Part shown: positions 52,919 through 61,054 of the stretch, one piece after another
Layout: each line of letters opens with the position of its first letter
Position numbering within the stretch: the first letter of the stretch is position 1
NCBI GenBank assembly: GCA_905236715.1
Contig: CAJOMQ010000005.1
Location: 1-64,000 of the forward strand
DNA: 64,000 nucleotides
Origin: an uncultured Bacilli bacterium
Lineage (GTDB): Bacteria; Bacillota_I; Bacilli_A; RFN20; CAG-826
Direction of reading: 5' to 3'
Notes under the pieces: model-generated
What the model was told of the DNA's origin: nothing
What the model saw: the letters and a program-made list of their open reading frames with translations, nothing else
Databases searched by the model: none
Translations under genes and position numbers: made by a program

Positions 52919-53314
52919 ATGAAAAAATTCTACCGTCAATTAAATGCCTATTTTAAAACGGTATGTTGGACTATCCTCATTACCCTCGCTTTATTTATCT
53001 GCCTCATTCCCCTTTTCTTCTTTAATTTAATGGAATTACCATTAGGGTTGGCATTAGGGGGAATATTTGGTGGGATATATTATCTCATCGCGGGGTTTAA
53101 TCAAAAAGAAGATTACACCAAAAAAAGTCTTATTATTGATGTCATCTTATTAATTACCCGCTTCCTATTATTCGCGGGCGCTGTGATTGGGTTAGCGTTT
53201 CTGTATTACAAAGGCGAAATTCATCTCTTTAATGTTTATGCCTTTGCGGGAGCCTATCTCATCAGTTTATTAACATTTATTCTTATCAGCGGAAAGGAGA
53301 AAAAAATTCAGTGA
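52919..53314 (+). CDS. atpI: AtpI-like membrane protein
   Basis: The 131-residue protein has four membrane segments (ILITLALFICLIPLFFF; LGLALGGIFGGIYYLIAGF; VILLITRFLLFAGAVIGLAFLYY; FAGAYLISLLTFILI) and sits at the AtpI position. AtpI helps c-ring assembly. Sequence similarity to known AtpI is low; the call rests on position and topology. It begins 2 bases after the PFK stop and overlaps atpB (GTGA). Confidence 0.75.
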   Translation: MKKFYRQLNAYFKTVCWTILITLALFICLIPLFFFNLMELPLGLALGGIFGGIYYLIAGFNQKEDYTKKSLIIDVILLITRFLLFAGAVIGLAFLYYKGEIHLFNVYAFAGAYLISLLTFILISGKEKKIQ

Positions 53315-54087
53315 ATTACATTTCTTTACCTGAAATGGGCGAAAAATTCTTAAGCACCGAAATTGCCGGTGAAGTTTTTTCTTCGCTCATCGTCATGGGT
53401 ATTGAAGTGATTCTTTTCGCGATTATTGGTATCATGGCTCATTTCCATGATCCCTTAAAGAAGCCCAAAGGTTTATTAGCCATCGGGGAAATACTTGTGG
53501 AATTTTTTGACCGCCTAGTCTCTGATTTAATGGGGCCACGATTTAAAGGATTCGGTGGGTTTGTGATGGCCATCGCTGTTTATTTATTCCTAGCGTTTAT
53601 CTTTGGCCTAACTGGTTTACCAAGTCCTGTGACTTATATCGCTATTCCGTTATCGTTAGGTTTAACGACATTTGTGCTCATTCACGCGACTAGTGTTCGC
53701 TTTACCAAATTCCGTTATTTCAAAAGATATGTGGAACCAATTCCTTTATTCTTACCGATTAATTTAATCAGTATGTGGGCCCCTTTATTATCTTTATCTC
53801 TCCGTTTATTTGGTAACGCGATTGCCGGATGGACCATCATGACTATGCTTTATTACGCTTTAGAAAATTTATCCGCAAAAATCTTCGCTTTTATCCCCAG
53901 CACTGGTGCGGTTAGTTGGGGTTCGGTTATTTTACCCGCGATTCCGGCGGGTGTTTTGCACCTTTATTTTGATTTATTCTCCGGGTTCATTCAAACGACC
54001 GTCTTTATCTTCTTAACGATGTTATTTATCGGTCAAGAAGCCCCCGAAGATGAAGAATATGAATTACAGACGAAAGGAGGTCATTAA
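53311..54087 (+). CDS. atpB: ATP synthase subunit a
   Basis: The 258-residue membrane subunit starts with GTG behind GGAAAGGAG. The essential Arg lies in LSLSLRLFGNAIAGW near residue 170, and the C-terminal helix pair (ILPAIPAGVLHLYFDLFSGFIQTTVFIFLT) is typical. Subunit a forms the two ion half-channels facing the c-ring. Confidence 0.96.
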   Translation: MNYISLPEMGEKFLSTEIAGEVFSSLIVMGIEVILFAIIGIMAHFHDPLKKPKGLLAIGEILVEFFDRLVSDLMGPRFKGFGGFVMAIAVYLFLAFIFGLTGLPSPVTYIAIPLSLGLTTFVLIHATSVRFTKFRYFKRYVEPIPLFLPINLISMWAPLLSLSLRLFGNAIAGWTIMTMLYYALENLSAKIFAFIPSTGAVSWGSVILPAIPAGVLHLYFDLFSGFIQTTVFIFLTMLFIGQEAPEDEEYELQTKGGH

Positions 54088-54088
54088 T

Positions 54089-54304
54089 ATGTCTAATGCA
54101 CTCGCTGCTGCAATTGCTATTTTGGCGGTTATGCCTTCCGCATTAGGTGAAGCTCTTGTGTGCTGTCACGCTCTTGATGGAATTTCTCGTAATCCCGAGA
54201 ATTATAGCAAAATTCGTACCACAATGATCTTAGCGTGTTCCTTAGTTGAAACAACCGCTATTTATGCATTGTTAGTGGCTATTTTATGTATTTTTGTCGC
54301 TTAG
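54089..54304 (+). CDS. atpE: ATP synthase subunit c with two-carboxylate motif
   Basis: The real start is ATG 54089 behind AAAGGAGG (71 residues). The loop SRNPE and outer-helix site LVETTAIYALL contain the ion-binding Glu. Aligning with Na+-binding c subunits puts Glu (in ALGEAL) at the position of Q32, and E-T-T-x-I-Y at 65-70. A second carboxylate at 32 with Thr66 and Tyr70 is the pattern described for Na+ rings such as Fusobacterium nucleatum. Na+ coupling is therefore likely (inference). Confidence 0.95.
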   Translation: MSNALAAAIAILAVMPSALGEALVCCHALDGISRNPENYSKIRTTMILACSLVETTAIYALLVAILCIFVA

Positions 54305-54320
54305 TAAGGAGGTTATATTG

Positions 54321-54878
54321 ATGATTCAACTAAGTAAATGGCTAGTTGTCTTCGCGCAAGCGGAATCAGAAACGCCCATTTCGGAAGATAGTTTTATAAA
54401 TAAACTCATCCCCAATTGGACTTCTTTTGTTGCGCAACTTGGTGCTTTAATCGTTGTCCTCATCCTCGTGATACTCATCGGTTATAAGCCCTTAAAGAAA
54501 ATGCTCAAGAAAAGACAAGATTATGTGGAAAATTCCATCCGTGATGCGGAAGTCGCCAAATTACAAGCCGAACAAGATCGTGAACAAGCTCATGAAGCGG
54601 TTTTAGCCAGTCAAAATGAAGCTGTGCAAATCCTCGCTAATGCGAAAAATACCGCGGATTTAAAAGCGCAACAAATGTTAGAACAAACCAATATGCAAAT
54701 TGCCAAAATGAAACAAGATGCCGAAGAAGATATTGCGCGTTCCAAACAAGAAGCACTCGATGAAATTCACGATGAAATGGTCTCGGTGGCCTTATCGGCA
54801 ACTAGCGAAATTCTCAAACGGGAAATTAACGAGAAGGACAATGCCCGTATTGTCGAAGACTTTATAAAGGAAATGTAA
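54321..54878 (+). CDS. atpF: ATP synthase subunit b
   Basis: The start is ATG 54321 behind AAGGAGG; 185 residues. One membrane helix (LGALIVVLILVILIGYKPL) is followed by a long charged coiled coil (KMLKKRQDYVENSIRDAEVAKLQAEQ...). It forms the peripheral stalk. The acidic stretch before the helix (AESETPISEDS) is longer than in many b subunits. Confidence 0.95.
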   Translation: MIQLSKWLVVFAQAESETPISEDSFINKLIPNWTSFVAQLGALIVVLILVILIGYKPLKKMLKKRQDYVENSIRDAEVAKLQAEQDREQAHEAVLASQNEAVQILANAKNTADLKAQQMLEQTNMQIAKMKQDAEEDIARSKQEALDEIHDEMVSVALSATSEILKREINEKDNARIVEDFIKEM

Positions 54879-54881
54879 AAC

Positions 54882-55421
54882 ATGAATGAAGTCGCGTCTC
54901 GTTATGGTTTAGCTTTATATTCTCTTGCTTTGGAAAAAGATAAGGTTTTACTTTGGCAAGAAGAAGTAAAAGAAATAATGCGTGCTTTTAAAGAGAACGC
55001 GGATTTTATCATGGTTTTAGGCAGTGATTTCTTATCGATGGAAGAAAGAAAACTAATGCTTCGTACCACTTTAAAAGGAGTGGACAACGAGATTGTTTCT
55101 TTATTAGAAATCGCCATTAATAATCACCGCACAAATGAAATTAATAATATCCTTTTAGCTTTTAATTCTTTGTGTAACGAATATCAAGGAATTGAAGAAG
55201 GATACCTTTATAGTAGTGTTCCATTAGATGAATCTACGATTGATCAAATAAGTGAAAAAATATCTAGTATTGAGCATCATAAAATCGCTCTTATCAATCA
55301 TATTGATCCCAACCTTATTGGTGGTGTCAAAGTGGTGGTACATGACCGTATTTATGATGGTTCAATCAAACATCATCTCGAACAGATGAAAAAAGACCTT
55401 TTAACAAAGGAGGGCAAATAA
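54882..55421 (+). CDS. atpH: ATP synthase subunit delta
   Basis: The 179-residue protein has the OSCP/delta layout: N-terminal helical bundle (ASRYGLALYSLALEKDKV), and the C-terminal strand NHIDPNLIGGVKVVVHDRIYDGSIKHHLEQM. It links subunit alpha to the stalk. It starts 3 bases after atpF. Confidence 0.95.
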   Translation: MNEVASRYGLALYSLALEKDKVLLWQEEVKEIMRAFKENADFIMVLGSDFLSMEERKLMLRTTLKGVDNEIVSLLEIAINNHRTNEINNILLAFNSLCNEYQGIEEGYLYSSVPLDESTIDQISEKISSIEHHKIALINHIDPNLIGGVKVVVHDRIYDGSIKHHLEQMKKDLLTKEGK

Positions 55422-56927
55422 ATGAAAATCAATGCCAATGAAATAAGTGCCTTAATCAAAGAACAAATTAAAAATTATCATGCCAAAGTCGACGCTAATG
55501 ATGTCGGAACTGTGGTCACCGTCGGTGATGGAATTGCCATTATCTATGGTCTAGATAAAGCGATGCTAGGAGAATTATTAATTTTCCCACACGATGTTTA
55601 TGGCATGGTGATGAATTTAGAAACCGATTCTGTCGGAGCGGTTTTAATGGGTGATGATTCTTTGATTAAAGAAGGGGATGTTGTGAAAAGAACTGGTGAA
55701 GTTATGGAAGTCCCTGTTGGGGAAGCGATGCTTGGCCGTGTTGTTAATGCCTTAGGTCAACCAATTGATGGCTTAGGAGAAATTAAGACCACCAGTCGTC
55801 GCCCCATTGAAGTTATTGCCCCCGGTGTTATTAAAAGAAAGTCAGTGGATACTCCTTTAGAAACTGGTTTAACCGCGATTGATGCGATGACCCCGATTGG
55901 TCGTGGTCAACGTGAATTAATTATCGGTGATCGTCAAACCGGTAAAACCGCAATCGCTATTGATGCTATCATCAATCAAAAAGATAAAGATGTCATTTGT
56001 ATTTATGTCGCTATCGGGCAAAAGAATTCCACGGTCGCACAAATCGTGGAGAAATTACGTAATCACCACGCTCTTAGTTACACAATGGTGGTAGCCGCTA
56101 CCGCTAGTGAACCCGCTCCATTACTTTATATTGCACCATATGCTGGATGTGCCATGGCGGAAGAATTCATGAGCCAAGGTAAAGATGTTTTAATTGTCTA
56201 TGATGATTTAAGCAAACACGCTGTCGCTTATCGTACTTTATCTTTGTTATTAAAACGTTCGCCTGGTCGTGAAGCTTATCCTGGTGATGTCTTCTATTTA
56301 CATTCTCGTTTACTAGAAAGAGCGTGCAAATTAGCCCCCGAATATGGTGGAGGTAGTATTACTGCTTTACCGATTGTGGAAACTCAATCTGGTGATATTT
56401 CCGCTTATATTCCCACCAATGTCATCTCCATTACCGATGGACAAATATTCTTAAATACCGATTTATTTAATGCTGGTCAAAGACCCGCGATTGATAGTGG
56501 ACTTTCCGTTTCTCGTGTTGGTGGCGCCGCGCAATTTAAAGCCACCAAGCAAGTCGCTAAATCTTTAAAAATTGATTTAGCCAATTTCACGGAAATGAAA
56601 TCATTCTCCCAATTTGGTAGTGATTTAGATAAATCCACTTTAGCGGTATTAAAACACGGTGAAACCTTATTAGCGATGCTCCGTCAAGAGCAATACAAAC
56701 CCCGTCAATTAGATCAACAAGTCTTTGAATTATATCTATCAAATACCCGTTATTTAGATAATGTTGAACCCAATAAAGTCAGAGAAACAATTGATAGTTG
56801 TTATGATTTTATCGCCGCGAATAACAAAGAAATATTCCCATCAATCAATAAAAATAAACAAATCTTACCCGAAATCGAAGCGGCTTTAAAACAAGCTGTG
56901 GAAACCTATTTTAACGGACAAAAATAA
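55422..56927 (+). CDS. atpA: ATP synthase subunit alpha
   Basis: The 501-residue subunit has Walker [16 protein letters not shown] near residue 170, the VYVAIGQK-like [14 protein letters not shown], the BYDDLSKHA segment and the [11 protein letters not shown]-like [14 protein letters not shown]. Length and motifs are standard. GGAGGG lies 8 bases before the ATG. Confidence 0.97.
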
Positions 56928-56930
56928 TCT

Positions 56931-59579
<2,649 letters not shown>

Positions 59580-59596
<17 letters not shown>

Positions 59597-60413: not shown

Positions 60414-60490
60414 AGAGGTACTATACCATATTTTATGACATAATTTTATTTAATTATGCTAAAGTAATATTGAATTTTGGAGGATTTTGT

Positions 60491-61054
60491 ATGCATTGTT
60501 GGCATGATGTACAACCAAATCGCATTACCGCGGATGAATTTGTGGCCCTGATTGAAATTTCTAAAGGTAGCAAAAATAAATATGAATTAGATAAAGAAAC
60601 TGGTCATTTAATTCTTGACCGTGTCTTATTTACGTCGACTATTTATCCACAAAATTATGGTTTCATCCCCCGTACTTATGCCCAAGATTACGATCCTCTT
60701 GATGTTTTAGTTTTATGTTCGGAATCCATTTTGCCCATGTCTTTTGTTAGATGCACCCCAATCGGTGTGATGATTATGAAAGACAATGGCTTACCAGATG
60801 AAAAAATCATCGCGGTTTGTCAGGATGATGCTTTTTATAAAGACTTCAAAGATATCCAAGATATCCCTCCTCACATCATGGATGAAATTAAACATTTCTT
60901 CGCGGTCTATAAATCCTTAGAAGGAAAAGATACGGAAATTGGTGATATTCTCGGTGCTAAAGAGGCCAAAGAAATCATTAATAAATCTCTTTCTTCTTAT
61001 AAACGCGATATTGAACCCAAAATTAAAGCGGAAAGAAATGCCCGCGGATATTAA
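60491..61054 (+). CDS. ppa: Inorganic pyrophosphatase, class I
   Basis: TTTGGAGG places the start at ATG 60491 (MHCWHDVQPNRI), 187 residues; the track's earlier ATG lacks a site. ISKGSKNKYELDKETGHLILDRVLFTST, YPQNYGFIPRTYAQDYDPLDVLVL (metal Asp residues) and CQDDAFYKDFKD are family motifs. It hydrolyses PPi. That would compete with the PPi-type PFK at 51711 for the same pool. Confidence 0.94.
   Translation: MHCWHDVQPNRITADEFVALIEISKGSKNKYELDKETGHLILDRVLFTSTIYPQNYGFIPRTYAQDYDPLDVLVLCSESILPMSFVRCTPIGVMIMKDNGLPDEKIIAVCQDDAFYKDFKDIQDIPPHIMDEIKHFFAVYKSLEGKDTEIGDILGAKEAKEIINKSLSSYKRDIEPKIKAERNARGY

What the first reader, a model, noticed from the sequence alone, without database searches (positions are those of the whole stretch)
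54089..54304. ATP synthase c subunit with Glu at both ion-site positions
Aligned on RNPE and the ETTAIY site, the c subunit has Glu where Na+ rings have Q32, besides the conserved Glu65, with Thr66 and Tyr70. A two-carboxylate site is known from the Fusobacterium nucleatum Na+ ring. This predicts Na+-coupled ATP synthase or hydrolysis in this lineage.
Basis: partly seen in the sequence, partly recalled or inferred. Interest (0 to 1): 0.6.

Follow-up and report, generated by a model that had tools for sequence, protein, structure and literature searches.

The report
Sodium-type ATP synthase rotor, gut Bacilli
This is the rotor (c) subunit of an ordinary bacterial ATP synthase whose ion site carries the full residue set of known sodium-driven rotors, including a second glutamate as in Fusobacterium, so this uncultured gut bacterium probably runs the enzyme on sodium ions, a known type found here in a new lineage.

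Summary
54089-54304 encodes a 71-aa F-type c subunit in a complete atp operon. It aligns without gaps across the site with the solved Ilyobacter and Fusobacterium Na+ rotors: Glu21 = position 32, Glu54 = 65, Thr55 = 66, Thr56 = 67, Tyr59 = 70. All six same-genus genomes share this E-E-T-T-Y set, and it dominates the order.

The inference is partly right. A second Glu does not indicate Na+: the same motif is reported in the H+ rotors of Streptococcus pneumoniae, Mycobacterium tuberculosis and the Burkholderia N-type ATPase. The prediction rests on the complete set, above all Thr66 with Thr67, which is a published criterion.

Supporting context: the genome has one rotary c gene, a full Rnf operon, an SNF-family symporter, and no hit for five other ion-pump or antiporter families tested. 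The stator residue equal to E. coli aGlu219 is never acidic in the 102 operons paired with this site.

It is a new member of a known kind, the two-carboxylate Na+ rotor. The one departure is the TM1 glycine motif GxGxGxG, which is VxPxAxG here. It suggests a ring of more than 11 subunits. Coupling ion and ring size are untested.

The parts
54089..54304 (+). atpE: F-type ATP synthase subunit c, 71 aa
   Evidence: predicted two-helix hairpin with pLDDT 94.6, TM-score (query) 0.88 to 3ZK1 and 0.87 to 1YCE
54149..54151 (+). Glu21 codon = position 32, second carboxylate
   Evidence: alignment to 1YCE and 3ZK1; nearly invariant in relatives
54242..54265 (+). Leu52-Val53-Glu54-Thr55-Thr56-Ala57-Ile58-Tyr59 = positions 63-70, the helix-2 part of the ion site
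54128..54148 (+). helix-1 motif V14-x-P16-x-A18-x-G20 in place of G25-x-G27-x-G29-x-G31
53311..54087 (+). atpB: subunit a (stator), conserved Arg165 in SLSLRLFGN; Trp174 at the E. coli Glu219 position
   Evidence: PF00119 E=3.2e-32; alignment to PS3 and chloroplast a; residue mapping of PS3 Glu178 to E. coli Glu219 in PMC6377231
52919..53314 (+). small membrane protein in the place of atpI, no family match
   Evidence: role inferred from position only
54324..54878 (+). atpF: subunit b
54882..55421 (+). atpH: subunit delta
55422..56927 (+). atpA: subunit alpha
   Evidence: TIGR00962 E=2e-235
56931..57773 (+). atpG: subunit gamma
   Evidence: TIGR01146 E=6.1e-66
57787..59199 (+). atpD: subunit beta
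   Evidence: TIGR01039 E=6.5e-247
59192..59596 (+). atpC: subunit epsilon
   Evidence: TIGR01216 E=7.4e-25

Best explanation
This is the c subunit of a normal F1Fo ATP synthase with a two-carboxylate Na+ site of the Fusobacterium nucleatum kind. By homology, each site lies between neighbouring c subunits. Glu54 (65) carries the exchanged ion. Glu21 (32) stays protonated and donates a hydrogen bond while its oxygen ligates Na+. Thr55 (66) and the backbone carbonyl of Leu52 (63) complete the shell, Thr56 (67) holds the water, and Tyr59 (70) stabilises Glu54. Na+ is loaded and released past the stator arginine (a-Arg165). In this anaerobic gut Bacilli member the complex either makes ATP from a Na+ gradient set by Rnf, or spends ATP to export Na+ for Na+ symport. 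Shown here: the residues, the operon, the conservation and the genome content. Inferred: Na+ binding, coupling and direction.
For: Gap-free match of the whole ligand set to 1YCE, 3ZK1 and A. woodii 4BEM, all Na+ rotors. The E-E-T-T-Y set in all six same-genus genomes, and 103 of 108 E-E-[ST]-x-Y proteins with a polar residue (T, C or S) at position 67, where published H+ enzymes have Leu, Ile or Val or Met. Genome: one rotary c gene, complete Rnf operon, SNF-family symporter; no OAD beta, membrane pyrophosphatase, complex I/Mrp, NhaC or CPA antiporter matched. The aGlu219 position is non-acidic in 102 of 102 distinct operons with a T/C/S67 Na+-like site, and in 16 of 16 such loci in a class-wide sample, but is Glu in 4 of 4 operons with an Ile32/Ala66 site.
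Against: No biochemistry. The published Na+ rotors have Val at 63 and a glycine motif in helix 1, and neither is kept here. Na+-type rotors can also translocate H+, and the Fusobacterium ring itself is H+-selective at equal ion concentrations. Rnf may pump H+ or Na+, and sequence does not settle which. PMC6377231 argues that subunit a does not set selectivity, so the stator pattern is only circumstantial. The MAG is 94% complete, so gene absences are provisional.
Confidence: 0.76

Rival explanations
1. An H+-coupled rotor that only keeps part of a Na+-like site (the 'mix' type), with the second Glu adding a fixed proton. Two protons are bound per site and one is transported.
For: H+-driven two-carboxylate rotors exist: S. 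pneumoniae and M. tuberculosis, and the B. pseudomallei N-type ring with E-E-T-M-Y. 'Mix' H+ rotors with Na+ motif elements are documented (PMC2914638).
Against: The known cases lack one or more ligands: Mtb is D-E-A-A-I and Burkholderia has Met at 67. This protein has all of them. The stator position used by H+ enzymes is also non-acidic here.
Confidence: 0.15
2. A promiscuous rotor that uses Na+ or H+ according to conditions, as proposed for Methanosarcina acetivorans. In rumen-like acid pH it would carry both.
For: M. acetivorans is reported to couple both ions, with a predicted two-Glu site. Many close relatives are rumen MAGs, where pH can be mildly acid (general knowledge).
Against: Nothing sequence-based singles this out. 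The local residues match Na+ rotors rather than a hydrophobic H+ site.
Confidence: 0.08
3. The Glu21 carboxylate is not in the ion site (register error).
For: None found.
Against: The alignment between positions 25 and 70 has no gap and is anchored on RNPE and ETTAIY. The predicted fold superposes on 3ZK1 at 1.4 A over 69 columns. Glu21 is nearly invariant.
Confidence: 0.01

Closest known systems
Fusobacterium nucleatum c11 rotor (PDB 3ZK1/3ZK2; PMC3692424)
   Same: Glu at 32 and 65, Ser/Thr at 66, Thr67, Tyr70, single hairpin, anaerobe
   Different: Thr instead of Ser at 66, Leu instead of Val at 63, helix-1 motif VxPxAxG instead of GxGxGxG, shorter C-terminus; coupling not measured
Ilyobacter tartaricus / Propionigenium-type c11 Na+ rotor (PDB 1YCE)
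   Same: Complete Na+ ligand set in register
   Different: Gln32 there, Glu here; glycine motif lost here
Acetobacterium woodii c2 subunit (PDB 4BEM)
   Same: Na+ site E-T-T-x-x-Y; Rnf-containing anaerobe (general knowledge)
   Different: Gln32; mixed c1/c2 ring, whereas only one c gene is present here
Burkholderia pseudomallei N-type c17 rotor (PMC5376962)
   Same: Two carboxylates, Thr66, Tyr70, altered glycine motif
   Different: Met at 67 and measured H+ specificity; a second operon there, whereas this is the only one here
Mycobacterium tuberculosis c ring (PDB 8J0S)
   Same: Two carboxylates in the site
   Different: D-E-A-A-I site, H+ driven; lacks Thr66, Thr67 and Tyr70

Membership tests
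F-type ATP synthase subunit c | PF00137 / TIGR01260 match and essential helix-2 carboxylate | tested here: met
   Glu54 invariant
F-type ATP synthase subunit c | Encoded in an atp operon with a, b, delta, alpha, gamma, beta, epsilon | tested here: met
Na+-type c subunit | Gln/Glu32, Glu65, Ser/Thr66, polar residue at 67 (Ser, Thr, Gln, Arg), Tyr70 (PMC2359735) | tested here: met
   E-E-T-T-Y
Na+-type c subunit | Na+ protects from DCCD/NCD-4; Na+-stimulated ATPase | not testable with these tools
   needs protein
Two-carboxylate Na+ rotor (F. nucleatum kind) | Glu32 and Glu65 both ligate Na+, with Glu32 protonated | not testable with these tools
   residues present; geometry needs a ring structure
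c11 Na+ rotor | Glycine motif GxGxGxG in helix 1 | tested here: not met
   VxPxAxG
c11 Na+ rotor | Eleven subunits per ring | not testable with these tools
   only single-chain prediction was available
N-type ATPase | Second, separate operon beside a regular F- or A-type one | tested here: not met
   only one PF00137 match in the genome; no 'alt_F1F0' model reaches its cut-off

The most novel reading that the evidence does not exclude
A Na+-driven two-carboxylate rotor whose helix-1 glycine motif is replaced by VxPxAxG, so that the ring has more than 11 subunits. It would depart from the c11 size of every F-type Na+ rotor characterised up to PMC3692424 (2013), giving this low-energy gut lineage a higher Na+/ATP ratio.
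Probability: 0.35. Interest if true: 0.5.

Novelty: new member of a known kind. Interest (0 to 1): 0.32.

Why it matters
It extends probable Na+ bioenergetics to a large group of uncultured, small-genome gut Bacilli, whose Rnf and ATP synthase would normally be read as proton machines (PMC7301438 does so for Rnf in relatives). The lost glycine motif makes a testable exception to the uniform 11-subunit size of characterised F-type Na+ rings, which PMC3692424 leaves as an open question.

Tried and rejected
Two carboxylates as a marker of Na+: rejected, because H+ enzymes share it. Subunit-a Glu219 as proof of ion type: kept only as a correlation, since the V67 relatives are mixed (one Glu in L114; Tyr in L136, L145, L148) and PS3 work assigns selectivity to the ring; no characterised Na+ subunit a was available as a control. 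Structure prediction confirms the hairpin but says nothing on ion type: its top PDB matches are mostly H+ rings. Papers naming Na+ coupling in RFN20/RF39-type Bacilli: none found. Na+/alanine symporter AGCS in the genome: no match.

Full report
Observation. The ORF at 54089-54304 (+) encodes MSNALAAAIAILAVMPSALGEALVCCHALDGISRNPENYSKIRTTMILACSLVETTAIYALLVAILCIFVA. It matches PF00137 and TIGR01260 above their cut-offs and is the only PF00137 match in the 1.29-Mb, 94% complete genome. It lies in a complete operon: small membrane protein, a, c, b, delta, alpha, gamma, beta, epsilon. AlphaFold2 gives a helical hairpin, pLDDT 94.6, that superposes on 3ZK1 and 1YCE at 1.4 A.

Register. In the alignment with 1YCE, 3ZK1, 4BEM and 8J0S there is no gap between positions 25 and 70 of the Ilyobacter protein relative to this one. 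Glu21 is position 32, Leu52 is 63, Glu54 is 65, Thr55 is 66, Thr56 is 67 and Tyr59 is 70.

Is it chance or local? Fetched relatives came from genus, family and order and from named MAGs, chiefly ruminant and other animal-gut Bacilli. Of 131 distinct c subunits, 108 have Glu at 32, and 108 have the combination E32, E65, S/T66, Y70; position 67 in those is Thr 85, Cys 17, Val 4, Ser 1, Ala 1. All six genomes of the window's own genus carry E-E-T-T-Y. In a class-wide sample, retrieved by similarity to a recalled Streptococcus c sequence and therefore not random, Q-E-T-T-Y and E-E-T-T-Y or E-E-S-T-Y are the commonest sites.

Does the second Glu predict Na+? No. Schulz et al. 2013 (PMC3692424) state that S. 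pneumoniae and M. tuberculosis, both H+ driven, share the two-carboxylate motif, that the added Glu is constitutively protonated, and that for selectivity it is equivalent to Gln or Asn. The M. tuberculosis c subunit aligns as D-E-A-A-I. The B. pseudomallei N-type ring, with Glu30, Glu61, Thr62, Met63 and Tyr66, was measured as H+ specific (PMC5376962). The published Na+ criterion is the complete set with a polar residue at 67 (PMC2359735). The window protein meets it through Thr55 and Thr56. Na+ coupling is therefore the best prediction, on the full set.

Stator. Subunit a keeps the essential arginine (Arg165, SLSLRLFGN). The position that is Glu219 in E. coli and Glu178 in Bacillus PS3 is Trp174 here. 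Among distinct operons with E32/E65/[ST]66/[TCS]67/Y70, none of 102 has an acid there (Trp, Phe, Tyr and others), while four of four operons with an Ile32/Ala66 site have Glu. Sixteen of sixteen Q/E-[ST]-T-Y loci of the class sample are also non-acidic. Exceptions to a simple rule are the Val67 relatives: L114 has Glu; L136, L145 and L148 have Tyr. Sequences are related, so the counts are not independent, and PS3 work holds that selectivity lies in the ring. I treat this as a correlation.

Genome context. The genome has a complete Rnf cluster (C, D, G-position protein, E, A, B, then ApbE-like, NusG-II domain and Hpre_diP_synt_I proteins), conserved in the same genus, and an intact SNF-family symporter. 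No match was found for the oxaloacetate decarboxylase beta family, membrane pyrophosphatase, complex I/Mrp, NhaC, CPA antiporters or AGCS. A soluble pyrophosphatase lies at 60470-61054. The simplest picture is an anaerobe whose Na+ circuit is Rnf plus this ATPase; which way the ATPase usually runs cannot be told from sequence.

What differs. The F-type Na+ rings characterised up to PMC3692424 are all c11 and carry a glycine-rich motif in helix 1; changing those glycines enlarges rings, and this does not by itself abolish Na+ coupling (see also PMC2914638 and PMC5376962). Here the motif is V-P-A-G at the four positions, as in 33 of 108 distinct Na+-like relatives; only 22 keep four glycines. 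This suggests, but does not show, a ring larger than 11.

Verdict. It is a new member of the known two-carboxylate Na+ rotor kind. Ring size is the one point that could be new.

Noticed in passing
L132:3422-3739 (-); L133:2632-2949 (-): RnfB of this genus is only 105 aa: membrane anchor plus one FeS domain (PF04060), without the ferredoxin-type clusters of usual RnfB. The short form is conserved in two genomes of the genus.
   Followed up: partly
L132:5298-5840 (-): The RnfG-position protein has no Pfam or NCBIfam match; it may be a strongly diverged RnfG.
   Followed up: no
L144 and L145 (genome G031); L116 and L148 (G037); L104 and L147 (G035): Some relatives carry two c genes, one with a Thr67 Na+-like site and one with Val67, the latter next to its own subunit a; possibly paired Na+ and H+ ATP synthases in one cell.
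   Followed up: partly
L020, L021, L023, L026 and others (same order): Asp at position 64 next to the ion-carrying Glu65 (ALDETTGIY), giving three acidic residues around the site together with Glu32.
   Followed up: no
L025, L067-L075, L140, L158, L167: Cys instead of Thr at position 67, the water-binding position, in several genera; its effect on Na+ binding is unknown.
   Followed up: no
window 52919-53314: 131-aa membrane protein in the usual atpI position without any family match.
   Followed up: partly
L152: Asp instead of Glu at position 32 (D-E-T-T-Y), the only such case seen in the order.
   Followed up: no
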